Shown here: in pieces, positions 5,549 through 20,203 of the stretch
How positions within the stretch are numbered: the first letter of the stretch is position 1
Layout of the letters: each line of letters opens with the position of its first letter
Source of the DNA: Bacteroidia bacterium
GTDB taxonomy: Bacteria > Bacteroidota > Bacteroidia > UKL13-3
Assembly: GCA_025454975.1 (NCBI GenBank)
Contig: JALONK010000038.1
Location: 1-41,307 of the forward strand
DNA: 41,307 bases
Direction of reading: 5' to 3'
Position numbers and translations under genes: made by a program
The notes under the pieces: generated by a model
The model's database searches: none
The model's input: the letters and a program-made list of their open reading frames with translations, nothing else
What the model was told of the DNA's origin: nothing

Positions 5549-6268
5549 TTAGGCCATAAAACGCTCCAACTTCATTTTGCGTTTCTCCCAATCTTTTAAA
5601 TGTTTTGTTTGTAATTCTATAAACTTTTGCGTGTGATCATGATATATTAAGTGACAAAGCTCGTGAATTATTACATACTCAATACAAAGTTTAGGAGCTT
5701 TAATTAATTCAGGATTTATGATAATTTTACCTTTAGCAGTGCAACTTCCCCAACGGGTAGGCATGCTACGAAATGAAAATTGAAATGAACTAACCTTCAA
5801 CTTATTCCTTTTTATGAAGTTATTGAATAAATTTTCTGCGAGAGGTTTAATTATCGCTTTTGCTTTTGATAAGTACCAATTATCAACCATCATTTTCACC
5901 TTCGATAAATCAGAGGTGTGAACTTCAATGAATTGGCCCTTAAGCTTTACAACATCGCTCTTAGGATTAAGTTTAGCCTTAATAATTTTTAGGCGATATT
6001 GACGACCTAAATACAAATGAGTTTCACCACTAACATATCTACGCTGAGGAGTAATTGGTTGAAAGGAAAGGAAAAGACTTTGTTGTTTAATAATCCAAGG
6101 TGCCTTTTTAATGATTTTATCCTTAATTATTTCAAGTTTTGCATGAGTTGGTGCTTTTACAAGAACTTCCAAATCAGGCGTAACTGTTATCCCAAGAGAT
6201 TTACGGTTTACGTACACCAAACGAAATTGAATAGTTCTACTTCCGTATTGTATATAATCAAAAATCAT
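5549..6268 (-). CDS. YgjP-type zinc metallopeptidase (DUF45/SprT-like), linked to hsdR
   Basis: A 239-residue cytosolic protein of the YgjP/DUF45 (M48-like) family. The conserved RSMPTRWGSC (about 167-176) is followed by the zinc site HELCH (202-206), with the third ligand probably His212 in YHDHTQKF. Such genes often sit beside type I restriction genes; here the start overlaps the end of hsdR by four bases (ATGA), so it is translationally coupled to it and is the last gene of the defence island. Its substrate is unknown; a role in regulating or processing the restriction subunit is only inference from position. Confidence 0.88.
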   Translation of the reverse strand: MIFDYIQYGSRTIQFRLVYVNRKSLGITVTPDLEVLVKAPTHAKLEIIKDKIIKKAPWIIKQQSLFLSFQPITPQRRYVSGETHLYLGRQYRLKIIKAKLNPKSDVVKLKGQFIEVHTSDLSKVKMMVDNWYLSKAKAIIKPLAENLFNNFIKRNKLKVSSFQFSFRSMPTRWGSCTAKGKIIINPELIKAPKLCIEYVIIHELCHLIYHDHTQKFIELQTKHLKDWEKRKMKLERFMA

Positions 6269-9200
6269 CTGTAGTGCCTACTTGCAACATCAATAAATTT
6301 TTCAGCTAAATCATCCATATCTGAGTATTCAAAATGAATTCCATACTTAGAACAAATTTCATCAATAATATAATCCCCAATTTCAATAATTAACTTTCCC
6401 GTAATATTTGATTTAGTGTACCAATCAATAACAAGCTTACTATCTTCGAAAACAATACTTTGAATTAATTGATCAATATGTTTGGCAATTTGTAAGGCTA
6501 CATCATTTCTAATTTTATTGTCAATTATTTTTTCGTCAAGAGCAAGTAATGATATTCCATAAATTGCTTTTGCTACTTCTAGTTTTTTGAGCTCTTCAGG
6601 CAAGTGGCTGTCATCACGATTAACTACAGCATTCATAATATTAATCACCTTATTTAAATACTGTAATTCATTGATTCGTTTGGCCTCATAATCAGCAATA
6701 GTCTCTTTTAAAAGCTGAGAAAACTTCTTATAAAACGCGGGATCTTCATCCATTCGTTCAGTAATATGTTTAGCTGTTCGACTTAAAATTTTATCAGCCT
6801 TTGCAGCTTTGCCAGTTGTATTTTCGACTTCCTGTTTAAATTTATCTTTATCAAAAATATTTACCAACTCAGTTATTTGTTTTATTTCTTCTGTGGTAAT
6901 ATGCGTGTCAATTAATTTTTGAATTTGTCCTTCATATTGTTTATAATCTATCTCATCGCTATATCTTTCAATAACTGCAATACGCAACTTTAAAAACATT
7001 GTTAAATCTTCTTTATATCTATTAATTAGCATTGCATCAACTTCTCTATGAAATTGAATTGATGACAAGGCCAATTTTAAGCCCTTCGCAAAAATTGCAA
7101 GTTTATCATAAAACTGCACCCTTAGTGCTTCATCTTTTAATAATTGCTGGTATGCCTCGGCATCTCGTTTGTTAGATATAATTTTAAATATATCCCATAA
7201 GTCAGCGTGTTTCTGTGATAATTGATTAACTACTGTGCTTATATCTGTAAGAGTACCTGCTAAATCCGTTTCATCAAAATCACTAAAAGAAGAATACATA
7301 TTTAAGGCACTATCTAAATTTTCAATTACCCCATAATAGTCAATAATATAACCATATTCTTTATCCGGATAAACTCTATTAACCCGAGCGATTGCTTGCA
7401 ACAGTTTATGCCCTTGTAAATTTCTTGTAAGGTATAATACAGTATTTTTAGGTTCATCAAATCCGGTAAGGAGTTTATCAACCACTATAATTATTTCAGG
7501 ATCTTTTTGATTTTTAAACCTATTAATTATATTCTTTTCATAGCTTTTAGCGTTGCCATGTTCATTAATCATTCGTTTCCAAAATTGATTTATTCTTTCA
7601 TTAGATTTTTCAAATACACTCTCCTCACCTTCTCGCTCATCAATGGATGAAATAATCACTTCACTACTTACCAATCCAATTTCATCTAAGTATTCTTTAT
7701 ATTTAATAGCACTAGTTTTTTTATCACAAACCAATTGTCCCTTAAATGGTGTTTTGCCTTGCCAGTTGTCGCGAAAATGGTAGCTTATATCCCATGCAAT
7801 CATCCTCATTTTTTGCTCTGCCGAATTTAAATGATCACTTCTAGTAAATTTTTTCTTGATATCTAACTTTTGATATTCAGTTAGAGGCTCAGCAACCATA
7901 TTAAAAAAAGTATCAATTGGTTTGGCATTCACTTCTTGTAATGCCAATCTTCCTTCATAAAGTAATGGAACAACAGCTTGATCTGAAACAGCTTGATCTA
8001 CTGTATATGTATCAATTATTCCACCAAATTTTTCAGCAGTACTTTTATCTTTCTTAAAAAGTGGTGTTCCTGTCATAGCGATGAAACATGCATTTGGCAA
8101 GGTCTTTTGCATATCAATATTAAATGTTCCGTATTGTGTTCGGTGACCCTCATCTACTAAAACAAATATATCATGACTTTCTAATGGCTGATTGATTTTT
8201 CTGACCGCCGCAACAAACTTGTTGATAATGGTTGTAACCACTGCATCGCTTTTACTTTCCAGCAATTCCACCAAACGTTGTCCGGTTGTTGCATTTTCTA
8301 CGAACTTGCCACATTTTCTAAACGTACTAGTAATCTGATTATCTAAATCAGTTCTATCTGTTACCAATACAATCTTAGGGTTGCGAATACTTTGTTCCAT
8401 AGCAATAGCTTGAGCTAACATCACCATAGTTAATGATTTTCCGCTTCCTTGTGTATGCCAAATTACGCCACCTTTTCTTCTACCCTGCTCAACATTTCTG
8501 ATGCGTTGCATTGATTTTTTAATAGCAAAAAATTGTTGGTAACGTGCTACCTTCTTTACACCGTTATCAAACAAAATGAAATTAAAAACAATATCCATCA
8601 ATCGTTGAGGACTACATAAGCCATACAAATAAATGTCTTGTTCCGTTGGTAAAATTTCTTCTTGCTCCAGTGCATCAAAGTATTGGCTTACATATTTGAA
8701 GCGGTCTGAAAATAATTGTTCTTTAACCAAGTTAGAAAGTGGAGTATTTTTAAGCTTTTTCAACTGTTCATTATACTCTTTTAACTTTTCGCTATCATCA
8801 AATTTCTCCTGCCACTTAGCCCAAAATTTTTCAGGTGTGGCGTTTGTAGCATAAGTGGCTTTTTGCGTAGCAATGCTCAAGACAAGTTGAGCATATACAT
8901 ACAAGCTAGGAATTCCGTCTTCTTGCTGATTGCGTACATGCTGACTGATAGCCTGTTTCAACGGCTCTTTCATATCAGGTCGTTTGCATTCTATTATACA
9001 AAGCGGAATACCATTTACAAATAAAACCAAATCAGGTCGGTAATGTTCTTTGCTATTGCTTCGCATTACATTGAACTCCTCGGTTACATGAAACACATTA
9101 TTGCTTATATTTTTCCAGTCAATGTACTGAAGTGTAAAACTCTTCTTGTCGCCATCCACACTTTGTTCCAAGGCTTGCCCTAAAGTAAGCAGGTTATATG

Positions 9201-9492
9201 CTTTCTCACAAGCTGCAATGTAGCCTTCATGCATAGGGAGGTTTTTCAAAGTAAGAATACCCCGTTCAATATTTTCATCTGTGAAAATACCGGTTTTAGT
9301 TGTACTTACTCTTATGCTGTTAATTTCCTTCAATTGTTTTCTCAAGATATCTTCCAACAACACATTGATTGATTTTCCACTTCGTTGCCTGTCGGCTTCT
9401 GCCGGGCTTAGATAGGTGTAGCCCAAATTTACTAACATTTGCAATGCAGGAATTTGACTGATATGGTCTTCTTTAAAACTTGGTATGTCCAT
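6265..9492 (-). CDS. hsdR: Type I restriction endonuclease subunit R
   Basis: A 1075-residue motor and nuclease subunit that cuts unmodified DNA after translocation. The N-terminal PD-(D/E)xK nuclease core is visible as YRPDLVLFVNGIPLCIIECK (Asp154, Glu168, Lys170). The SF2 helicase follows: Walker A HTQGSGKS (346-353), DEGH box (447-450), MTGTP (473-477), and motif VI region LLQAIARVNRVYP. A long helical C-terminal region presumably binds the methylase core. Length and motif order are normal, with no frame breaks. It is separated from the upstream DUF3800 gene by 194 bases, so it may have its own promoter, and from hsdM by about 8.6 kb of mainly CBASS-type genes, which is unusual. Confidence 0.97.
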   Translation of the reverse strand: MDIPSFKEDHISQIPALQMLVNLGYTYLSPAEADRQRSGKSINVLLEDILRKQLKEINSIRVSTTKTGIFTDENIERGILTLKNLPMHEGYIAACEKAYNLLTLGQALEQSVDGDKKSFTLQYIDWKNISNNVFHVTEEFNVMRSNSKEHYRPDLVLFVNGIPLCIIECKRPDMKEPLKQAISQHVRNQQEDGIPSLYVYAQLVLSIATQKATYATNATPEKFWAKWQEKFDDSEKLKEYNEQLKKLKNTPLSNLVKEQLFSDRFKYVSQYFDALEQEEILPTEQDIYLYGLCSPQRLMDIVFNFILFDNGVKKVARYQQFFAIKKSMQRIRNVEQGRRKGGVIWHTQGSGKSLTMVMLAQAIAMEQSIRNPKIVLVTDRTDLDNQITSTFRKCGKFVENATTGQRLVELLESKSDAVVTTIINKFVAAVRKINQPLESHDIFVLVDEGHRTQYGTFNIDMQKTLPNACFIAMTGTPLFKKDKSTAEKFGGIIDTYTVDQAVSDQAVVPLLYEGRLALQEVNAKPIDTFFNMVAEPLTEYQKLDIKKKFTRSDHLNSAEQKMRMIAWDISYHFRDNWQGKTPFKGQLVCDKKTSAIKYKEYLDEIGLVSSEVIISSIDEREGEESVFEKSNERINQFWKRMINEHGNAKSYEKNIINRFKNQKDPEIIIVVDKLLTGFDEPKNTVLYLTRNLQGHKLLQAIARVNRVYPDKEYGYIIDYYGVIENLDSALNMYSSFSDFDETDLAGTLTDISTVVNQLSQKHADLWDIFKIISNKRDAEAYQQLLKDEALRVQFYDKLAIFAKGLKLALSSIQFHREVDAMLINRYKEDLTMFLKLRIAVIERYSDEIDYKQYEGQIQKLIDTHITTEEIKQITELVNIFDKDKFKQEVENTTGKAAKADKILSRTAKHITERMDEDPAFYKKFSQLLKETIADYEAKRINELQYLNKVINIMNAVVNRDDSHLPEELKKLEVAKAIYGISLLALDEKIIDNKIRNDVALQIAKHIDQLIQSIVFEDSKLVIDWYTKSNITGKLIIEIGDYIIDEICSKYGIHFEYSDMDDLAEKFIDVASRHYR

Positions 9493-10425: not shown

Positions 10426-11190
10426 TTATAAATCAATTACTTTATTCGTTTCAAAAAGCGAATGTTCGTTTCGTTGCACATAGCCAAACTGGTTGGTTAT
10501 AAGCTTGGTGTTGCCAATTGTGAACTCAGGGGTATTGGTATGATGATGTCCATAACACCAATAGTTAATGTTTGAATGTTCAATTACATCGTATAACTCC
10601 ACTGCAAAAGCTTCGTTTAAAACATCACCTTTGTATTGCTCGGGGTAGTTTAAAAAAGTTGGGCAGTGGTGGGTAAAAACAGCCATGTGTTCTTCTATGT
10701 TTTTATTTAGTTCGTATTTAATAAACGCTAAACTTTGTGCATGCAGTTGGTTGTATAACTCAGCTGTAAAACGATAGCTTTTGTGCTTGATTAAATGAAA
10801 ATCATTCAGGCTGCGTTCAATCTGCCATTGGCAGCCGGTACTGATGTGACTCCACAGGGTTGAGAAAATCAACTTCACACCTTCATGTACCACAGAAGTA
10901 TTGTTTACCAAAAACACATTGCTGCGAATGGCCTCGTGCACTAAACCGCTTTTTTCGGCTATATCAAAATGGTAATACTCATGATTACCCGGAAGCCAAT
11001 AAGTAGTTTTAAAGTTATCTGATATATAACTAAAAAAATCTCGGTGTTTATCAATTACAGAAAAGGGCACAATATCGCCTGCCAACACCAATACATCAGC
11101 GGTTGGCTGCAAAGGGTGCTGTTTTAAAAATTCCTTGTTAGCGGGAAATTCTAAATGCAAGTCGGAGGCGTATTGGAGTTTGAGTGGCAT
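10426..11190 (-). CDS. Calcineurin-like metallophosphoesterase in defence island
   Basis: A 254-residue cytosolic phosphoesterase. The five metal-binding blocks are readable: LQYASDLHLEF (about residues 5-15), VLVLAGDIVPF, WLPGNHEYYHF, AVFTHHCPT and CYGHHHTN. The substrate cannot be read from sequence: such enzymes cleave cyclic nucleotides, nucleoside polyphosphates, phosphoproteins or nucleic acid ends. Its ATG overlaps the stop of the GGDEF gene by one base (TAATG), a strong coupling signal. A role in removing a nucleotide second messenger made by a neighbour would fit, but that is inference. Confidence 0.88.
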   Translation of the reverse strand: MPLKLQYASDLHLEFPANKEFLKQHPLQPTADVLVLAGDIVPFSVIDKHRDFFSYISDNFKTTYWLPGNHEYYHFDIAEKSGLVHEAIRSNVFLVNNTSVVHEGVKLIFSTLWSHISTGCQWQIERSLNDFHLIKHKSYRFTAELYNQLHAQSLAFIKYELNKNIEEHMAVFTHHCPTFLNYPEQYKGDVLNEAFAVELYDVIEHSNINYWCYGHHHTNTPEFTIGNTKLITNQFGYVQRNEHSLFETNKVIDL

Positions 11191-11951
11191 TAAACAATTG
11201 ATTTCGTGTTATTCTTACCTGAAATTTTCTTTGCTTCGTTTAGAGCTTCTGTTACTCTATCGGTAAAAGAAGTATAATCGTCATTCTTTTTGAGCTCAGT
11301 TACTCCGCAGCAAACTGTTAATTTGTGAATTTCGCCATCAATAGAAAAAAGGTTTTTTTGAATCAATTTCCTTTTTCTTTCTGCTGCTTGCATTGCTTGA
11401 CTTAACGTTGTATCATAAGCAACAACTAAAAATTCATCCCCTCTATTGAAGTATCTAAACGTCTCGTCTGTGACTCTTTTATCATTGCTTAATAGTTCGC
11501 CTAGGTTCTTCAATATTTGGTCTGCCTTTTTAAATCCATAAAGTGTGTTGAAGCTTTTGAAATCATCAATATCAATTATTATCAAGGAAAGAGATTCTGA
11601 TCTATTCTTGGACTGTTGTAATTTTAGTTTTAAATACTCATTTAGTGCTTTATGATTTTTTAGTCCTGTAAGTTCATCTGTGTGGTTGTCATTTAAAACT
11701 AAACGTATTTTTTTTCTAAAATACCTACTAACGAAAAAAGTTGTAATAGTAATAAGGACAATTGCAGAAATGATAATTGCATATGTAGTAATATAGTGTT
11801 GAGTTAAAAACCATTTTTTTACATATGGAATCCATTTTGTTGGAATAAGCAGTATTAATGAAATTATGAGCCATTTAAGTAAGTCATAAATACCCTTTGA
11901 TAAGGCATCATTCTTAAATTTCTTAACGGATTCTCTAATGTAATTTACCAT
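11190..11951 (-). CDS. Membrane-anchored GGDEF-domain protein
   Basis: A 253-residue protein with two hydrophobic helices (about 25-42 and 53-75) and then a GGDEF nucleotidyl-cyclase domain. The domain shows DELTGLKNH (92-100), the metal-binding LIIIDIDDFKSFN (Asp127) and the active-site loop RGDEF (170-174), a tolerated variant of GGDEF. I see no canonical RxxD inhibitory site five residues ahead of it; the nearest RVTD is seven away. There is no EAL, PAS or CHASE domain. The family makes cyclic di-GMP, but placement ten bases after the broken CBASS synthase and coupled to a phosphoesterase suggests a specialised signal role (inference). GGDEF genes are otherwise sparse in many Bacteroidota. 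Confidence 0.85.
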   Translation of the reverse strand: MVNYIRESVKKFKNDALSKGIYDLLKWLIISLILLIPTKWIPYVKKWFLTQHYITTYAIIISAIVLITITTFFVSRYFRKKIRLVLNDNHTDELTGLKNHKALNEYLKLKLQQSKNRSESLSLIIIDIDDFKSFNTLYGFKKADQILKNLGELLSNDKRVTDETFRYFNRGDEFLVVAYDTTLSQAMQAAERKRKLIQKNLFSIDGEIHKLTVCCGVTELKKNDDYTSFTDRVTEALNEAKKISGKNNTKSIV

Positions 11952-11961
11952 TTCTTTTTAT

Positions 11962-12748
11962 TTAAATTACCGGGAACTTCTCCCCAAACTGCTGTTTCCA
12001 AATGTTTAGTGCTTTGGTTTGACTGTCTTGCTGTAAGGCCTGTTCCGCTTGTTTTATTAATTCATTAAATGCTTCTTTGAAATTGCTTTTTTGATTGCTG
12101 TCTAATTTTGCCAGAAAATCATCACCTGGTGTTGATGGGTTTATGCTAACTGCTTCCCAACCAAATGAATTCTTGATGGCTTTTGCAGTTTCATAAAAAG
12201 CAATATCATCTCGTGTATTTGATTTATAATAAGTAGCTACCCAAACACTGAAAGCAATGCCACTTGGCATTTTTCTGCTTCTCTGGTTTGCCCATGTTTT
12301 GAAGTATTTTACCAAGCGTAGCATCTGACCATTTTTATCTTTCTCTTTACGTTGTTTTTCAAACCAATCGCATAATTCTTTAGGATCGCTTTCTTGCCAC
12401 CCTCTTTTAGTAGCTAAGTATGGATGTTTTAGTTCTTGTGTAAAAAAATACATTTTTAACAGCATCTACAACATAGCCTTTCAGTGTCTCAGGTTGAACA
12501 CTTGGTCTAAATAAAAAGTATACACCCAAATCAACGTCATAACTACCGTCCCTTTTCACAACCATGGTTTTCATTTTGTATGAACCTTGTATGTAAAATT
12601 TTGGTACGGGAACTTTCGTTTTATTTTTGAAATACTCCACAATTGTTTTTTGTAAAGCTTTACGAGATGCAACAAGTTTATCCTTTCTACCTTTAGTAAG
12701 AGATATAGCTTGTTCGAACTTTAAAAATTGGTTATGTGTATTTGCCAT
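11962..12748 (-). pseudogene. CD-NTase (CBASS cyclic-oligonucleotide synthase) broken by frame shift and probable internal deletion
   Basis: Two reading frames make up one gene. From the ATG at 12748 the first frame encodes 113 residues with the nucleotidyltransferase signature: FYIQGSYKMKT (Gly55-Ser56) and DGSYDVDLGVYF (Asp71, Asp73). It stops at 12407. The next frame continues from about 12450 to 11962 with HPYLATKRGWQESDPKELCDWF and LRLVKYFKTW, the C-terminal half of the same family. At the junction the frame shifts by one base near seven T residues (A7 on the plus strand at 12442-12448). The segment with the third catalytic acid (YHIDLP-like; YHMDILP in CD-NTase 1 nearby) is missing, and the combined length of about 262 codons is shorter than usual. 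A deletion of some 35-45 codons plus a frame offset explains this better than a single-base slip. It follows capV by 25 bases. Confidence 0.78.
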
Positions 12749-12773: not shown

Positions 12774-13847
12774 CTAAACAGTTCTTTGAGAATCAGTCCA
12801 CCGACTGCCACTCCCAAAATTCTCAATAATATATGTTGCATTGTTTTGAAATTCTATGGTTGCCTTTTCTGCAAGTTTTTTTAGTTTCCCTTTGTCGATT
12901 TCATCCATTTCAATAGGACAACTTTCATCTAATTGGGTGTCAATTCTGATATAGTTAAAATTATCTGGCTCTCTTTTATCTATACCATTTTTTAAGATGC
13001 TAATTAAGTTCTGTGCTTGTTGCGTTTGCCCTTGCATAAAAACTTCAATTAACCGTTTCTTCCCATCCTCAAGCATCCAGTAATTAATGCCATATTTAAC
13101 CCGATGGTTGTTTTTCTTGTCAATACCCGCATCGCAGAAGCGTTGATGGCCTGTCCCAATAGATAACACCGAAAGGTCTTTAAGCTCAAGATTGAAAGCT
13201 TTTTGGGCTTCAATAATTCCGTTAAGCGTAGGATTGTTAGCAAAAACGCCTCCGTCCACTTTGTTCTGAAATGGTTTTTCTAAACCATTCAAATCAATGT
13301 ATGAAGCCGAGTATGGGTCAAAGTAAGTTGGAGCTGCCGAAGTTGCTAAAGCTGCCTGATATGCTGGAATGTGAAAGTCTCTGACAAATGCAGGATGGTA
13401 ATTACTTTTTAGAACTGAAGGCCTGCCTTCCATTAAATCGTAAATCGGAATTGCAACATGTGTTTTGCAATGCGTTAACCTTGGGTCTTCGCCACCTTCT
13501 CCAGAGTGGAAAGCCTTGAATTTGTCTCTGATTAATTTTTCTAAAGCTTCACGATTGTGCGCAGCAAATTTGAATCTTCTGAGAAAGCTCTTTTTGTTTC
13601 CAAAAATGGTAGCAGCATTGTTCAAATAGAGTTCATAAATCTCTTTGGCAGGAATACCTAAAGAGAGTGCAATTGCCATAATCCCCCCGGTAGAAGTGCC
13701 ACATATTAAATCAAAGTTTTGGTACACCTGCCATTTTTCTTCACCTTTAGCTTTAAGTTCCGCTTCATAGTTGGCTAATAGCATTGCAGGAAAAACACCT
13801 CTGATACCTCCTCCGTCTATGGATAATATTTTAAATTTTTCAACCAT
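12774..13847 (-). CDS. capV: CBASS patatin-like phospholipase effector
   Basis: A 357-residue patatin-family lipase. The oxyanion loop DGGGIRG (11-17), nucleophile elbow GTSTGG (50-55, Ser52) and DGG of the catalytic dyad (Asp198) in KVDGGVFANNPTLNGI are all intact. In CBASS systems CapV is activated by a cyclic dinucleotide and degrades membrane phospholipids, killing the infected cell. The CBASS assignment rests on context: it starts eight bases inside the end of cap5 and is followed by a CD-NTase gene. That CD-NTase is broken, so the partner synthase may now be the intact one at 16607-17836. A housekeeping patatin lipase is a less likely alternative. Confidence 0.88.
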   Translation of the reverse strand: MVEKFKILSIDGGGIRGVFPAMLLANYEAELKAKGEEKWQVYQNFDLICGTSTGGIMAIALSLGIPAKEIYELYLNNAATIFGNKKSFLRRFKFAAHNREALEKLIRDKFKAFHSGEGGEDPRLTHCKTHVAIPIYDLMEGRPSVLKSNYHPAFVRDFHIPAYQAALATSAAPTYFDPYSASYIDLNGLEKPFQNKVDGGVFANNPTLNGIIEAQKAFNLELKDLSVLSIGTGHQRFCDAGIDKKNNHRVKYGINYWMLEDGKKRLIEVFMQGQTQQAQNLISILKNGIDKREPDNFNYIRIDTQLDESCPIEMDEIDKGKLKKLAEKATIEFQNNATYIIENFGSGSRWTDSQRTV

Positions 13848-14970
13848 TTTTGATCTCTATTGCTTTGAAAAAACCACTATTGACTGTGTTCTCATCATAG
13901 ATGTGCAAAGGCATATCTGCTTTTGGCATCCAAACCCTGCCAAATTCAATTGCTGTAGCAATTGGCATGGCTGGAAAAACATGCAGTGGGATGTGAGCAT
14001 CGCATTTTGATTTAATACAATTCAGCAACTTTCTCATTTCCATACTAAAATCCTGAAGCTGTTTTTTAGACTTTAAAAAGTCATTGAACGGTGCATCAAT
14101 AGTTAAGGTATAAATTGAACAATCATTTCCTAGCACTGAAGTTATTCGGTCATTATTAATTGTTGCACTTAACGAGATATTCAAAGCAACTGTTGGTAGA
14201 GTTTCTGAAGGCTCAATAACCTTATAAAGCGTTTCAGTTGCATCATCATTCAAATTCCACGTCTTTGGGGCTCTTACTGGTTGGTGTATTTCTGCGTGCT
14301 GAATATCATTTATAAGTGTGCCAAGTTTAATCAACAAGGGCATTGGAGCAAATGCAAATATGGAAAGATGATTGATTTCACCTTTTCTGAACTTTGGTCT
14401 TAATTGTTCATTAAACTGACTCTCAAGATTCTCCAATTCTGTTGCCCAAAAGCTTAAGTCTTTGTCACGCTGAGGGCTATTGCTCAAACTTAAATCTATT
14501 GCTTGTGACTGTGCCGGATAATGTGAAGGCAATAGGAATTCACGAACAGATTCATAGGAGATAACTGGAGTATGAACGCCAATATTTGCCTTATAGGTAA
14601 CAATGTGGCTATGCATGTTTGGATTGATTGAAGCTACTTTTTCAATTCTATCTTCATGTTCCTTTTTCATTACTAACAGTAATGATTCGGGATGACCTGC
14701 AACATCCTTTTTATCAATTAGTCTATGATGTTCATCACATAGAAGCATAAGATTAGAAATGTCGTCTTTTAATAATTCAGATCTAACCGAATCTCCTCTA
14801 GGTCCACCAGGCACGTCTGCAACAATATGAGCTATATAAGCTTGGTTAAATTCACTCTTTGTTAGCGCATCCACGAATAAAGGCTTGTTACATCCTCTAT
14901 ATTGGCACCTTCCGGCAGCTTTACCCCATAAAATGTATTTATTTGCTGGTGAAATATTTGTTACACTCAT
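13840..14970 (-). CDS. cap5: HNH-SAVED CBASS effector nuclease
   Basis: A 376-residue protein with an N-terminal HNH nuclease and a C-terminal SAVED sensor. The HNH part shows CQYRGC (Cys22, Cys27), AHIVAD (His48), GPRGD, NLMLLCDEHHRLID (Asn73, Cys78, His81/82). The SAVED-like half (about 180-376) has INHLSIFAFAPMPLLIKLG and the conserved tail HVFPAMPIATAIEFGRVWMP. In characterised Cap5 proteins, binding of a cyclic nucleotide to SAVED drives oligomerisation and indiscriminate DNA cleavage. Both halves look intact. The start overlaps the full-length hsdS stop by four bases (ATGA), and the gene is followed by capV, so two different effectors are adjacent. The domain assignment is from motif recognition; the ligand is not known. 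Confidence 0.9.
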   Translation of the reverse strand: MSVTNISPANKYILWGKAAGRCQYRGCNKPLFVDALTKSEFNQAYIAHIVADVPGGPRGDSVRSELLKDDISNLMLLCDEHHRLIDKKDVAGHPESLLLVMKKEHEDRIEKVASINPNMHSHIVTYKANIGVHTPVISYESVREFLLPSHYPAQSQAIDLSLSNSPQRDKDLSFWATELENLESQFNEQLRPKFRKGEINHLSIFAFAPMPLLIKLGTLINDIQHAEIHQPVRAPKTWNLNDDATETLYKVIEPSETLPTVALNISLSATINNDRITSVLGNDCSIYTLTIDAPFNDFLKSKKQLQDFSMEMRKLLNCIKSKCDAHIPLHVFPAMPIATAIEFGRVWMPKADMPLHIYDENTVNSGFFKAIEIKNG

Positions 14971-16166
14971 TTGATTCTGATTTTTCCGGTTAATAATTTC
15001 TGCATCAAGCCTTTTTTCTTTTCACGAAGTTTTTCAGCCTTTAATTTCAAAAGAGATATTTCTTTTTCTGCCGCTTGCAGTACTTGGGCAATGGCGGTTT
15101 GTTCCTCTAAAGACGGTATTTTAAAGCTCCATTCTTCTAAAGTTTCTCTATCTAGATTTCTTCTAACGATACTTGCTCCAATCACTGATGAACCTATCAA
15201 ACATTGAAGCATAATTTCACTTCGCACAAAAGACTTCATGAATTCAGCTGAAATCTTTGGATTGCAAATTTCAAAAACCTTATATGCAGGAGAAACCATA
15301 CCTATTTCATTTTGACTAAGTACATCGATTGAACCCATCCAGAAGTTCAATCCACTCATTACCATATCGCCTTTTCTTACCACTAAATATGGAGATGTAT
15401 CTTCGCTTGCTATTTCCTTATTGAAATACTCTGCCTGAGAGACTATACCATCTTTAGTAACAGATAATACCAAGTGTTTATCATCCCCAGCTTTTTGTTT
15501 GACTTGAGTGTATATTTCTTTAAAGCGGACAAATTTCCACTTCCCACTAAATCCCTTCAACCTCTTCTTCCCCGTGAGCAATTGCTGCATGAGCCATTTT
15601 TTGCGGAGTTCTTTTTGGACAATGAGTTTTTCTGTGGTGTTGATGGCTGTATCTGCCGTGCTTAGCACATGGGCTATGGCTTTTTGTTCGTGGAGTGGAG
15701 GAATTGTGATTTTATATTTTGAAATTTGTTCCCCAGTTAACTGTGGAATACCTCCACTTTCCTGATGAATTTGTAAAACTCCATTTACAAATTCTGTTAT
15801 ATAATGTGCAATAACATTTTCTTTTGGGAATAAAACCAAAAGTCTTCCAATGGCCCCATATTTTCCATTTCTAGTAAATGCTGTTCCTAAACCTGCACCT
15901 CGACCAACAATAGTCGTACTTTCCCCTGAAAATTCCTCAATATTGTAATAGCCATATAAACCTTCATTTTCGACAGTATTGGAATATACAGGTACTTGAT
16001 ATTCTTCACATTTACTACTAGAAAAATTATTTTCTTTCAAATCTCTGCCAACATAAATATTACAAACATCAGCAATAAATTTTAGCTCCCAACCTGCTGG
16101 AACTTTGGAGTCATAATTTGACATAGAGTCTTCGTTAACTTTATTTTTTGCTGCTACTTGCTTCAT
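14967..16166 (-). CDS. hsdS: Type I restriction-modification specificity subunit S, two target-recognition domains
   Basis: A 399-residue S subunit with two tandem target-recognition domains and two conserved helical spacers. The first spacer contains IPPLHEQKAIAHVLSTAD and ends KWLMQQLLTGKKRL (to about residue 203); the second contains IPSLEEQTAIAQVLQAAE and ends GLMQKLLTGKIRIK. This gives the normal two-half DNA recognition for the HsdM/HsdR complex. The ATG at 16166 lies 26 bases inside the end of the E2-like gene; an internal ATG at 16124 (MSNYDSKVPAGW) is an equally natural start. Unusually, hsdS is separated from hsdM by three genes, two of them CBASS genes. Confidence 0.93.
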   Translation of the reverse strand: MKQVAAKNKVNEDSMSNYDSKVPAGWELKFIADVCNIYVGRDLKENNFSSSKCEEYQVPVYSNTVENEGLYGYYNIEEFSGESTTIVGRGAGLGTAFTRNGKYGAIGRLLVLFPKENVIAHYITEFVNGVLQIHQESGGIPQLTGEQISKYKITIPPLHEQKAIAHVLSTADTAINTTEKLIVQKELRKKWLMQQLLTGKKRLKGFSGKWKFVRFKEIYTQVKQKAGDDKHLVLSVTKDGIVSQAEYFNKEIASEDTSPYLVVRKGDMVMSGLNFWMGSIDVLSQNEIGMVSPAYKVFEICNPKISAEFMKSFVRSEIMLQCLIGSSVIGASIVRRNLDRETLEEWSFKIPSLEEQTAIAQVLQAAEKEISLLKLKAEKLREKKKGLMQKLLTGKIRIK

Positions 16167-16626
16167 CTATAGTTTCTTTTTGTTTGTTGGCTTGTTTTTC
16201 GGCTTCTGTTTCGTGATTTATTCCACCACCGTGCCAAGTACCTGTGCAAACCCATAACTCGTAATGGCAAAGCCATTCGCAAGCCCAGGGAATTATTGTT
16301 CTGGTATAAAGCATTCCAACATTCCATTCAATTCTGTTGGGATAGTACAAGCATAGTCTCTGCTGCGGTGTGGAATAAACGTGTGGCAAGTGTTTATTAC
16401 CTGCTGCTAATGGCAAGGGCTTAGGGTCAATTACATATACTTTTACACCCTTGTTTCTAATGTACTCTAATTTCAATGTGTAAACACTGCTTAATGGTGA
16501 TGGTGTTACCGAACACGTCCAAGTGAGTGATTCCTCACGGAAGCGTTTGGTTACTCCATCGGGAAACATATTTTTCAATGTTCCCTCTTGCACAATCAAT
16601 GATATTCTATTGTTCTTCCTTACCAT
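16141..16626 (-). CDS. E2-like ubiquitin-conjugating-type protein of type II-short CBASS
   Basis: A 161-residue protein from the ATG at 16626 (the frame is open to 16689, but that overlaps the CD-NTase coding end). The sequence LTWTCSVTPSPLSSVYTLKL, then LPHVYSTPQQRLCLYYPN, then TIIPWACEWLCHYELWVCTG and TWHGGGIN is the pattern I associate with the stand-alone E2-like proteins next to CD-NTases. Cys92 in LCLYYP is the candidate catalytic cysteine. In related systems the E1-E2 protein Cap2 conjugates the C-terminus of the CD-NTase to cell targets and so primes it; short systems have only the E2. No E1 or Cap3 peptidase is present here. The last 20 residues are charged and Lys-rich. It overlaps the CD-NTase end by 20 bases. 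Confidence 0.8.
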   Translation of the reverse strand: MVRKNNRISLIVQEGTLKNMFPDGVTKRFREESLTWTCSVTPSPLSSVYTLKLEYIRNKGVKVYVIDPKPLPLAAGNKHLPHVYSTPQQRLCLYYPNRIEWNVGMLYTRTIIPWACEWLCHYELWVCTGTWHGGGINHETEAEKQANKQKETIDEASSSKK

Positions 16627-17836
16627 AAAAATTGTGATTCTTAACAGTAGTTCCGGCAGTTCCAAGCATTCCGGTTTTTGCAGCCACATTCAAACTTCCT
16701 CCTTCACGTTGTATTCGCAAGTTTTCACCGTAATTGCTGAACGCTTTTGTAACTGCATCTTTACCAAATGGCTTTTGCATGGATTCATTGATAAATTGTA
16801 AGCCCTTTCCGCTTTGTCCAATTATGTTGTTCAAGTCTTTCTTTACTTCATTTAACCAATGGTAAAAATTCTTCTCACGTTGCGGGTACTCTTGCCATTT
16901 ATCAGCAAAATTTTCTTCATCATTAACAGGGTTTGAAATCCACTTTATCCTTTTACCATGTTCATCTGACCAGCGTTCTTCAATGTAGTTTTCCATGGTG
17001 TTCACGACATTAATCAACGCCTCTATAATGTCTGTTTCCTTGTTATAGGCTTTTGAGGTAAGGGTTGTGATGATAATAGATATAGGCTTGTGCTCATTTC
17101 CATTAAATAGCATATCTCTATGCCTTTTCAGAATTTGAACTACTCTTTGTAGGGGAAGTTTTTCCTTTTTGAATTTGGGCACAGGGGCAATTGATTCGTT
17201 CAGAGAAAATGCTTTCTTGAAATCAAGCGTTGCTTGCTGAAAAAACCAACGACCATAACCGAAAGGGTTACTCTTTAGCCATTCTAAATGATTGGTTTCC
17301 CAGTCGTAGTTGTCTGTTTGATTATCGGTTATGCGAATACCAAGTTTCTCGATATCCTTAAGTTCAGAATCTGAAAAGGCCTTTTCCAGAATCATTCTGT
17401 AGCCTTTGTCAACGATGGAAGGAAGAATATCCATATGATAATTTGCATCATCAGAATAAACCAAAGTCCAGCATCGCCTTCCTTCTTCATCAAGCATCTC
17501 TTTATAGGTTCCGTGTGCTTTTAAACGGTCACCTACTTTATGTTTTAAATCTTCCTGTGTCCAGTCAGGATTTTTGCCTTTCAATTGGCAAACAAGATCA
17601 ATATCCAAATCGTCTTTATCATTGATTGGCTTAACCATTGTACCCAACATGAATGAGCCTTGTGGCAAAATTTCAGGCGAATAAGGTGCAAGTGTGGAAT
17701 CCTCTTTTGCAAGCCAATTTCCAACAGCTTCATAGCTTTTTACGGCTGCTTCGTATTGTGTTTCTGAAATGTCAAGTGTCTTTCCTAACTCTTCCAGAAT
17801 ATCGCTGAATTGTTGTTTTTGTTCTTTTGTAAGCAT
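16607..17836 (-). CDS. CD-NTase (CBASS cyclic-oligonucleotide synthase), intact
   Basis: A 409-residue cGAS/DncV-like nucleotidyltransferase, the sensor and signal-maker of CBASS anti-phage defence. The catalytic set is complete: LPQGSFMLGT (Gly60-Ser61), DDLDIDLV (Asp78, Asp80) and NYHMDILP (Asp136). A helical C-terminal half follows with KLPLQRVVQILKRHRD. The C-terminus reads GTTVKNHNFYGKEEQ: a His-x-Phe-x-Gly-like end that in type II systems is the conjugation site, but with four extra residues after the glycine. It starts two bases after the 81-aa gene and overlaps the E2-like gene, the type II-short order. Clade (CdnD/CdnG-like) and product nucleotide cannot be fixed by eye. Confidence 0.92.
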   Translation of the reverse strand: MLTKEQKQQFSDILEELGKTLDISETQYEAAVKSYEAVGNWLAKEDSTLAPYSPEILPQGSFMLGTMVKPINDKDDLDIDLVCQLKGKNPDWTQEDLKHKVGDRLKAHGTYKEMLDEEGRRCWTLVYSDDANYHMDILPSIVDKGYRMILEKAFSDSELKDIEKLGIRITDNQTDNYDWETNHLEWLKSNPFGYGRWFFQQATLDFKKAFSLNESIAPVPKFKKEKLPLQRVVQILKRHRDMLFNGNEHKPISIIITTLTSKAYNKETDIIEALINVVNTMENYIEERWSDEHGKRIKWISNPVNDEENFADKWQEYPQREKNFYHWLNEVKKDLNNIIGQSGKGLQFINESMQKPFGKDAVTKAFSNYGENLRIQREGGSLNVAAKTGMLGTAGTTVKNHNFYGKEEQ

Positions 17837-17838
17837 AA

Positions 17839-18084
17839 TTATTGGGTTTGAATAGAGTAGCAGTTAATAGCTTTCTTGTTTTTATCATAAACTGTTAGGA
17901 TTTGACAAGTTTCATCAACATCGAGTTCATAAGAAAAATCTGGGCTTACGATTCCATGCAGAAGTGAATCAAGTTTTACATTTCGTCTCTCAGTTGTGAA
18001 CTCAATTTCAGACGGATTAATAACTGACCATCCCTTTTCCAAAAGATATTTGTCCAACTCTATTATGTCATCGAATAGTTTCAT
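17839..18084 (-). CDS. Small unknown protein between hsdM and CD-NTase
   Basis: An 81-residue soluble, acidic protein (starts MKLFDDIIELDKYLLEKGWS). I do not recognise a family. Predicted alternation of short helix and beta segments (KLDSLLHGIVSP, CQILTVYDKNKKAINCYSI) suggests a compact alpha/beta domain. Its ATG overlaps the hsdM stop by four bases (ATGA) and its stop is two bases from the CD-NTase ATG, so it is tightly locked into the operon at the junction of the restriction and CBASS parts. That position makes it a candidate accessory, inhibitor or antitoxin-like protein, but nothing in the sequence proves this. Confidence 0.75.
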   Translation of the reverse strand: MKLFDDIIELDKYLLEKGWSVINPSEIEFTTERRNVKLDSLLHGIVSPDFSYELDVDETCQILTVYDKNKKAINCYSIQTQ

Positions 18085-19640
18085 TTCATTAATTGTTTAA
18101 GGTAATTATCCATTTCAGCCTGCACCGTTTTTAGTTCGCCTTCCAATTGCTCAATCTCTTTTTGCACGGCAGAAATATCCACTTCGGCTTCTTCTTCAAA
18201 GGTGTCTATATAGCGGGGTATGTTCAGGTTGTAATCGTTTTCCTGTATTTCTTTGGGAGTTGCTACATAGCTGTATTTATCTTCCACCACACCTGGCTTT
18301 AATTTACCATTGGCAAATTGGTTGTAGGTGTTTACTATATCGTTAATGTCTTGCTCGCGTAACTTGTTTTGGTTTTTAGCACTCTCGTAACGTTTGCTTG
18401 CATCAATAAACAATACATTATTGCTGCTCTTTTGCTTGTTAAAAACCAATATAGCTGCCGGTATACCTGTACCAAAAAACAAGTTGGCAGGTAAACCAAT
18501 TACGGCTTCTAACAAATTTTCTTCAATGGTTTTTTGCCTAATTTTTCCTTCGCTGCTGCCTCTAAACAACACTCCATGCGGCACTACTACACCAGCTTTG
18601 CCGTGTTCGTTTAAGGTTTCAATCATGTGGGTAATAAATGCCCAGTCGCCTTTGCTTTTTGGTGGTACACCGCGCCAAAAACGGTTGTATTTATCACTCT
18701 CAGGGTCGTAGCTCACTGTAGTTTTATCACCATCTTTGTCTTCTACCTTGCCCCATTTATCTAAAGAAAAAGGTGGGTTTGCCACAACAGTATCAAACTT
18801 CATTAAGGCATCACCTTCTTTTAATTTAGGGTTACGAATGGTATCGCCCCAACGGATAGTGGCATTATCAAATCCATGCAAAAACATGTTCATTACAGCT
18901 AATGCCCATGTACTGCCGTTGGCTTCTTGCCCGTAAAGTGAAAAGTTATCGGAGCCTACTTCTTGTCCGGCTTTAATAAGCAACGAACCCGAACCACAAG
19001 TAGGGTCGCAAATACGAGAACCAGGTTTGCTTTTGGTAAGTTTAGCCAATAATGTAGAAACCTCTGCAGGTGTAAAAAATTCGCCCGCTTTTTTGCCCGC
19101 ATCACTTGCAAAGTTGGCAATCAAAAACTCGTATGCACCACCTATAATATCGGTACCACCTAAATGCGAAGGACGCAGGTTCAATTTATCTGAACTAAAG
19201 TCAATTAAAAGCGTTTTTAAACGTTGGTTTTTATCTTTAGGTTCGCCTAGCAAGCTGCTGTTAAAACTTATATTTTTAAAAATTCCGGATCCATCTTCAC
19301 TGTATAATTTATCGCGGTTGGCTTCTTCCAAATCGGCAAAAGCAATATCAATTAACTCACCAATGTTACTCTCATTGCGGTGTTCGTATAAATAATTAAA
19401 GTGGCTGTGTTCGGGCACGGTAAAGCGTTCGTATTGCATCGAGCGTTTGGCACGGGTTAAATCGCCATCGTATTTTTTTAAATATGTATCTAACGTATCA
19501 TCATGCACATCACTTAAATATTTTAAGAACAGCATGGTTAGCACATAATCTTTATAAACACTTGGATCAATACTTCCCCTAAAAGTATCGCAAGCTTTCC
19601 ATACAGCATCGTTTATGTCTTTCTGTGTTATTTTAGCCAT
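18081..19640 (-). CDS. hsdM: Type I restriction-modification DNA methyltransferase subunit M
   Basis: A 519-residue N6-adenine methyltransferase. The N-terminal helical domain (ITQKDINDAVWKACDTFRGS) is followed by the SAM-binding motif RICDPTCGSGSLLIKAG (DPTCGSG at 212-218) and the catalytic motif VVANPPFSLDKWGK (NPPF at 288-291). The C-terminus ends in a coiled coil (VQKEIEQLEGELKTVQAEMD) used for contact with HsdS. Length and motifs are normal. A half-size S-like gene lies five bases upstream, and the full S lies three genes downstream. It is the core enzyme that protects self DNA for the HsdR at 6265-9492. Confidence 0.96.
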   Translation of the reverse strand: MAKITQKDINDAVWKACDTFRGSIDPSVYKDYVLTMLFLKYLSDVHDDTLDTYLKKYDGDLTRAKRSMQYERFTVPEHSHFNYLYEHRNESNIGELIDIAFADLEEANRDKLYSEDGSGIFKNISFNSSLLGEPKDKNQRLKTLLIDFSSDKLNLRPSHLGGTDIIGGAYEFLIANFASDAGKKAGEFFTPAEVSTLLAKLTKSKPGSRICDPTCGSGSLLIKAGQEVGSDNFSLYGQEANGSTWALAVMNMFLHGFDNATIRWGDTIRNPKLKEGDALMKFDTVVANPPFSLDKWGKVEDKDGDKTTVSYDPESDKYNRFWRGVPPKSKGDWAFITHMIETLNEHGKAGVVVPHGVLFRGSSEGKIRQKTIEENLLEAVIGLPANLFFGTGIPAAILVFNKQKSSNNVLFIDASKRYESAKNQNKLREQDINDIVNTYNQFANGKLKPGVVEDKYSYVATPKEIQENDYNLNIPRYIDTFEEEAEVDISAVQKEIEQLEGELKTVQAEMDNYLKQLMK

Positions 19641-19645
19641 GATAT

Positions 19646-20203
19646 TTATTTTATTGCGTTGATGATTTCTTGTTGAATTTGTTTTTCACGAAGCATTTCA
19701 ATTTTCTGCTTCAAAGATTTTTCTTTCTTGCGGAGTTTTGAAATTTCTACAATGACTTGTTGCGTTTTTATATCAGGAATCTGTATCTGTAAGTTTTCAA
19801 GCACCTGCTTTGAAATAGATGGAAGTGAACTTCCAATTGCTTGGGTTTTTAAAATTGATTGTATTAAATTACTATTTAGAAACCATACTATATATTCAGG
19901 TATCACTTGATCGGTTGTAAGTTTAACTACAAAAAAAGAAGTTGATGCAACAGCCGGTTCATTATGACTTTCATATAATGCTGCAAAATTTTTAAACCCT
20001 TTAGCAGCAAAAATAACATCCCCCGGTTTCAACAAATGTCGTTCTGAAATATCCTTACTACTAATTTCGCCATGTAACTTTTGTTGCAACACACCATTTT
20101 CATCGAAATGTTTAACTTGCAGATAAACTATATCGCCTGCACCTAGCGGCTTAGCGAAAACGCCTGTATGTATATTGGTAATATTTTTTATGATTTGTTT
20201 CAA
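19646..20203 (-). CDS. Half-length HsdS-like protein (single target-recognition domain)
   Basis: A 185-residue protein with one type I S target-recognition domain and one helical spacer. The TRD-type segments are LKPGDVIFAAKGFKNFAAL, STSFFVVKL and VIPEYIVWFLNSNLIQS; the end of the domain shows SSLPSISKQVLENLQIQIPD, and a coiled coil (ISKLRKKEKSLKQKIEMLRE) closes the protein. Full S subunits are about twice as long. It is the first gene of the island, ahead of hsdM by five bases. It could act as a homodimeric half-S subunit giving a second specificity, or be a remnant of an older S gene. The reading frame is clean and starts from an ATG. Confidence 0.82.
   Translation of the reverse strand: MKQIIKNITNIHTGVFAKPLGAGDIVYLQVKHFDENGVLQQKLHGEISSKDISERHLLKPGDVIFAAKGFKNFAALYESHNEPAVASTSFFVVKLTTDQVIPEYIVWFLNSNLIQSILKTQAIGSSLPSISKQVLENLQIQIPDIKTQQVIVEISKLRKKEKSLKQKIEMLREKQIQQEIINAIK

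What the first reader, a model, noticed from the sequence alone, without database searches (positions are those of the whole stretch)
11962..12748. Second CD-NTase lost its third catalytic acid through an out-of-frame deletion
The first half keeps GS and DVD, and the second half keeps the LATKRGWQESDPK block, but the part between them that should hold the YHxD acid is absent and the frames do not join. In CD-NTase 1 in this window that acid is Asp136, 56 residues after Asp80; here only about 25 residues follow Asp73 before the later block begins. The rest of the gene is well conserved, so the loss looks recent.
Basis: partly seen in the sequence, partly recalled or inferred. Interest (0 to 1): 0.62.

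Follow-up and report, generated by a model that had tools for sequence, protein, structure and literature searches.

The report
Broken second cyclase in CBASS operon
One of two signal-making enzymes in a bacterial anti-phage operon has lost 80 DNA letters, including a residue its active site needs, so it is almost certainly dead here although eight related operons keep it intact; this is ordinary recent gene decay inside an unusually cyclase-rich defence island.

Summary
The gene at 12748..11962 (minus strand) is a clade-B CD-NTase (CdnB-like) split into two frames. Its three nearest relatives (L014, L015, L016; 87-88% identical over the C-terminal fragment) have intact genes exactly 80 nt longer. 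The missing 80 nt cover about 27 codons and hold the third catalytic Asp (Asp123 in their numbering) and two core beta-strands. All 12 homologues aligned keep Asp71, Asp73 and Asp123. The remaining parts show dN/dS of 0.04-0.09 against close relatives, like neighbouring genes, so the loss looks recent. Misassembly cannot be excluded without reads.

The context is more interesting than the lesion. Nine loci share an operon with a CdnG-like cyclase, a patatin and a tail-less CdnB-like cyclase, eight of them inside a type I restriction-modification locus. The slot after CdnB usually holds a GGDEF protein, the only GGDEF in this genome. Only the window copy has a broken CdnB. It also carries an extra HNH-SAVED effector, the known partner type of CdnG. 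Most likely this strain now signals through CdnG alone.

The parts
12407..12748 (-). N-terminal fragment of the CdnB-like CD-NTase (CD-NTase 2): GS motif, Asp71/Asp73, then an out-of-frame tail VFFYTRTKTSILSY and stop
   Evidence: (PADLOC Cyclase PDLC00774, 6.5e-34, profile 1-101)
12441..12460 (-). deletion junction, with a run of seven T on the coding strand; 80 nt (26 codons + 2 nt) of the intact relatives are missing here
11962..12465 (-). C-terminal fragment ORF of CD-NTase 2 (homologous from about 12453); helical domain, no C-terminal E2-target tail
   Evidence: (PDLC00774, 1.4e-53, profile 128-287)
16607..17836 (-). CD-NTase 1, CdnG-like, intact: GS(60), Asp78, Asp80, Asp136; C-tail ..NFYGKEEQ
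16141..16626 (-). E2-like conjugating protein of a CBASS type II-short arrangement
   Evidence: PADLOC E2, 2.4e-50
13840..14970 (-). HNH-SAVED effector (Cap5-like), not found in the other dual-cyclase loci
12774..13847 (-). patatin-like phospholipase effector, intact (GTSTG, DGG)
11190..11951 (-). GGDEF-domain protein (RGDEF) with a hydrophobic N-terminal part, just downstream of CD-NTase 2; the only GGDEF hit in the genome
14967..16166 (-). HsdS specificity subunit lying between the E2 and the effectors
18081..19640 (-). HsdM of the type I restriction-modification locus that encloses the CBASS genes
6265..9492 (-). HsdR of the same type I locus

Best explanation
CD-NTase 2 is a CdnB-like CBASS cyclase inactivated by a recent 80-nt frameshifting deletion, most simply a single event. 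Shown: the segment with the third metal-binding Asp and two core strands is absent, and the halves are in different frames. Inferred: no full-length or active CD-NTase 2 is made, and immunity in this strain rests on CD-NTase 1 (CdnG-like, intact, E2-coupled), which would signal to the intact HNH-SAVED effector and perhaps also the patatin. The gain of the HNH-SAVED gene, or a patatin already responding to CD-NTase 1, may have made CD-NTase 2 dispensable.
For: L014, L015 and L016 each have an intact gene of 867 nt against 787 here, a difference of exactly 80. The gap is clean in the nucleotide alignment. Asp71, Asp73 and Asp123 are invariant in 12 homologues, and the missing stretch also holds T101, H107, K110, C111, R113, V114 and P125, invariant too. 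The predicted fold of the intact homologue (pLDDT 91.5) places strands 112-116 and 120-124 in the missing stretch and matches B. fragilis CdnB 7LJO at TM 0.94. In VcCdnG the three metal-coordinating acids are D73, D75 and D135 (PMC12804361). dN/dS of the remaining pieces against L014-L016 is 0.05-0.09 (N) and 0.04-0.09 (C), in the range of E2 and patatin. CD-NTase 1 is the only other SMODS hit in the genome. VcCdnG signals to the effector Cap5 (PMC12804361).
Against: The genome is an 83-contig assembly, and no reads or second assembly could be checked; the junction 36-mer was not found in viral contigs. Sequence on both sides of the junction is more diverged from relatives (60-68% over 60 nt) than the rest, so the history may be more than one event. 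That CD-NTase 1 now drives both effectors is not shown.
Confidence: 0.78

Rival explanations
1. The gap is an assembly or sequencing error, and the organism carries an intact CD-NTase 2.
For: Draft assembly of 83 contigs; the junction carries a T7 homopolymer; all eight other dual-cyclase loci are intact.
Against: Loss of 80 nt is not a typical homopolymer error; the other genes of the island are full-length with their motifs; the junction is about 12 kb from the window end; no second copy exists in the genome that could have caused a collapse.
Confidence: 0.16
2. The shortened gene still works in a new way: the two parts are made as separate chains, or slippage at the T7 run joins them, giving a catalytically dead CD-NTase that binds a partner or nucleotide.
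For: Both pieces look conserved at the protein level when measured against relatives; an ATG precedes the C part (12465) and the T7 run lies at the junction.
Against: Low dN/dS is equally expected for a very recent loss; two core strands and about seven other invariant residues are gone too, so the NTase domain should not fold; no relative shares this form.
Confidence: 0.05
3. The allele is natural for its lineage: a shorter CD-NTase 2 family without the segment.
For: None found.
Against: No homologue among the 12 aligned lacks the segment, and the two halves are in different frames.
Confidence: 0.01

Closest known systems
CdnB clade of CD-NTases (Bacteroides fragilis CdnB, PDB 7LJO)
   Same: The intact homologue L014 matches 7LJO over nearly the full length (2.4e-56; TM 0.94, 36% identity)
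   Different: The window copy lacks 80 nt with the third acid and is frameshifted; the dual-locus copies lack the C-terminal tail seen in single-cyclase CdnB loci
CdnG-E2 type II-short CBASS (Serratia marcescens CdnG-E2, PDB 8YJY/8HSB) and the V. cholerae CdnG-Cap5 system
   Same: CD-NTase 1 matches SmCdnG (2.4e-41) and 9woo, a 396-aa cyclic GMP-AMP synthase that is probably VcCdnG (5.9e-59); an E2 follows; an HNH-SAVED effector is present in the window
   Different: A second CD-NTase of another clade and a patatin sit in the same operon, inside a type I RM locus
Patatin-CdnB-E2 CBASS with one cyclase (loci L027, L028, L029, L053)
   Same: Patatin followed by a CdnB-like cyclase
   Different: There the E2 follows CdnB, and CdnB keeps a C-tail ending in YGG or YGE (L027, L029, L053); in the dual loci CdnB has no tail

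Membership tests
CdnB-clade CD-NTase | sequence and fold of clade B | tested here: met
   Intact relative: 7LJO 2.4e-56, TM 0.94; both window fragments hit PDLC00774 best
Active CD-NTase | GS motif and first two acids | tested here: met
   G55-S56 and D71-V-D73 present
Active CD-NTase | third metal-binding acid in one continuous frame | tested here: not met
   80-nt out-of-frame gap removes it
CBASS type II-short (operon as a whole) | CD-NTase with E2 and an effector, no E1 | tested here: met
   CD-NTase 1, E2, HNH-SAVED and patatin by PADLOC; no E1 or JAB gene seen in the ORF list, which was not searched gene by gene with profiles
CBASS type II-short (operon as a whole) | E2 conjugates the cyclase C-terminus | not testable with these tools
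   A tail ending NFYGKEEQ is present in CD-NTase 1; conjugation needs an experiment
CBASS (operon as a whole) | protection against phage | not testable with these tools
   No data

The most novel reading that the evidence does not exclude
The operon is a recurrent multi-cyclase CBASS. An E2-coupled CdnG-like enzyme and a tail-less CdnB-like enzyme share a patatin effector, and the next slot often holds yet another cyclic-nucleotide enzyme: GGDEF in six loci, a third CD-NTase in L015, Pycsar-type cyclases in L050. CdnB would act as a second sensor or as a guard of the first pathway, for example against phage proteins that mop up the signal. The window is then a natural knock-out of that second branch.
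Probability: 0.25. Interest if true: 0.7.

Novelty: new variant of a known kind. Interest (0 to 1): 0.33.

Why it matters
The broken gene itself is ordinary decay. It matters because it marks a dispensable part of a conserved two-cyclase CBASS operon and offers a natural comparison: eight loci with both cyclases against one with only CdnG plus an added HNH-SAVED effector. Whether two CD-NTases in one operon give different signals, share an effector, or guard each other is directly testable. No paper found in the searched library described this arrangement, but that library lacks most subscription journals.

Tried and rejected
A natural shorter family: rejected, none of the 12 homologues lacks the segment. 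A second, intact CD-NTase 2 elsewhere in the genome: none. The same locus in the same genus and family: not found by patatin or by E2, apart from the CdnG-only locus L037. An independent copy of the junction in viral contigs: none. Promoter and terminator scan around the gene: about what chance gives. Plasmid relatives of the C part: all below 60% identity, so no help with the junction. Papers on two CD-NTases in one operon: phrase searches gave none.

Full report
What is there. The window holds a type I restriction-modification locus on the minus strand (half HsdS 20203-19646, HsdM 19640-18081, HsdS 16166-14967, HsdR 9492-6265, YgjP-like peptidase 6268-5549) with CBASS genes inside it: CD-NTase 1, E2, HNH-SAVED, patatin, CD-NTase 2, then a GGDEF protein, a metallophosphoesterase and a DUF3800 protein. 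Those checked (CD-NTase 1, HNH-SAVED, patatin, GGDEF, HsdM, HsdR) are full-length with their motifs; only CD-NTase 2 is broken.

The lesion. CD-NTase 2 starts at the ATG at 12748 (MANTHNQF), as the match to B. fragilis CdnB begins at the same Met in the relative. The upstream ORF start at 12841 overlaps the patatin and need not be used. The N part runs in frame to VDAVKN and then reads VFFYTRTKTSILSY and a stop. The C part resumes in another frame with YFFTQELKHPYLATKRGWQESDPK. Close relatives read VKDQTVSGIEHKEKCIRVIYKGDFDIDLPVYYKTPNDKHPFLATK at that place. From ATG to stop the window has 787 nt, and L014, L015 and L016 have 867 nt each, so the net loss is exactly 80 nt. The best single-gap placements put the breakpoint at 12454/12452 or 12441; all remove Asp123, the third acid. 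A run of seven T lies at the junction.

What was lost. In an alignment of 12 homologues from Bacteroidota, Gly55-Ser56, Asp71, Asp73 and Asp123 are invariant, and about seven further invariant residues lie in the missing stretch. The AlphaFold2 model of the intact L014 protein (mean pLDDT 91.5) has strands 112-116 and 120-124 there and matches CdnB 7LJO at TM 0.94. CD-NTase chemistry uses three metal-coordinating acids, D73, D75 and D135 in VcCdnG (PMC12804361). Even if the frame were continuous, the enzyme would lack its third acid and two core strands. Inactivity is therefore inferred with high confidence but was not measured.

Age of the loss. dN/dS between the window and L014-L016 is 0.05-0.09 for the N part and 0.04-0.09 for the C part; patatin and E2 against the same loci give 0.05-0.08. 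So most of the divergence arose while the gene was still selected. The gene is also more diverged at silent sites from L016 (dS 1.5 and 0.8) than its neighbours patatin, E2 and GGDEF are (0.37-0.43), which suggests that this allele arrived by recombination from another lineage (inference). Identity falls to 60-68% in the 60 nt on each side of the junction; the same region is somewhat variable among the relatives too.

The operon type. Nine loci carry CD-NTase 1, patatin and CD-NTase 2 in this order: the window, L014-L019, L026 and L050. An E2 is present in all but L050, where CD-NTase 1 carries a fused AGS-C sensor domain. All but L026 are combined with the type I locus. CD-NTase 2 is intact in all eight others. 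CD-NTase 1 is CdnG-like (9woo 5.9e-59, SmCdnG 2.4e-41) and keeps a C-tail ending NFYGKEEQ. CD-NTase 2 in the dual loci has no tail, whereas single-cyclase patatin-CdnB-E2 loci (L027, L029, L053) have CdnB with a tail ending in YGG or YGE. The dual arrangement therefore looks like a tail-less CdnB added to a CdnG-E2-patatin core (inference). L037 shows that core alone (CD-NTase 1, E2, HsdS, patatin, HsdR, no CD-NTase 2), with a patatin 64% identical to the window's, against 32-41% for patatins of CdnB-only loci.

How it most likely works here. In V. cholerae, CdnG makes 3'2'-cGAMP, which activates the nuclease effector Cap5, an HNH-SAVED protein (PMC12804361). The window has an HNH-SAVED protein (closest solved chain 7rwk, 8e-98) that no other dual locus has. 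With CD-NTase 2 dead, CD-NTase 1 is the only intact CD-NTase found by the SMODS profile in this genome. The likely state is a one-cyclase CBASS with HNH-SAVED as effector and the patatin either served by the same signal or orphaned. The L037 arrangement favours the first. None of this signalling was tested.

Limits. No reads were available, and an assembly error remains the main rival. Family-wide counts come from samples of about 395 genomes each and from one pattern scan. The paper library is partial, so the dual arrangement may have been described in papers not held.

Noticed in passing
window 11190-11951 (minus): The GGDEF protein next to CD-NTase 2 is the only GGDEF in its genome and among 58 related genomes, and no EAL or PilZ domain was found in this genome. 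The same gene follows CD-NTase 2 in L014, L016, L017, L018 and L019. PADLOC has no model for it.
   Followed up: partly
L050 4585-6945: In place of GGDEF, this dual-cyclase locus carries two class III cyclase proteins matching PycC (1.3e-42 and 5e-9) and a PycTM-like effector, so CdnG, CdnB and Pycsar parts lie in one type I RM locus.
   Followed up: partly
L015 5649-6527: A third CD-NTase (CdnB-like, PDLC00774 7.1e-66) directly follows CD-NTase 2 in place of GGDEF.
   Followed up: no
L051 6657-8486: A tail-less CdnB-like cyclase next to a TIR-STING effector (prok_STING 5.3e-38).
   Followed up: no
window 16607-17836 and L015, L016: CD-NTase 1 is only 65-67% identical to its counterparts in L015 and L016, while the C-terminal tail is nearly identical by eye and the E2 is 93-95% identical: the cyclase body looks swapped by recombination while the E2-target end is kept.
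   Followed up: no
window 19646-20203 (minus): A half-length HsdS-like protein of 185 aa precedes HsdM here and in L014, L016-L019 and L050, apart from the full HsdS downstream.
   Followed up: no
L018 5995-6531: A 178-aa protein without Pfam or PADLOC match sits between HsdS and patatin, the place where the window has HNH-SAVED.
   Followed up: no
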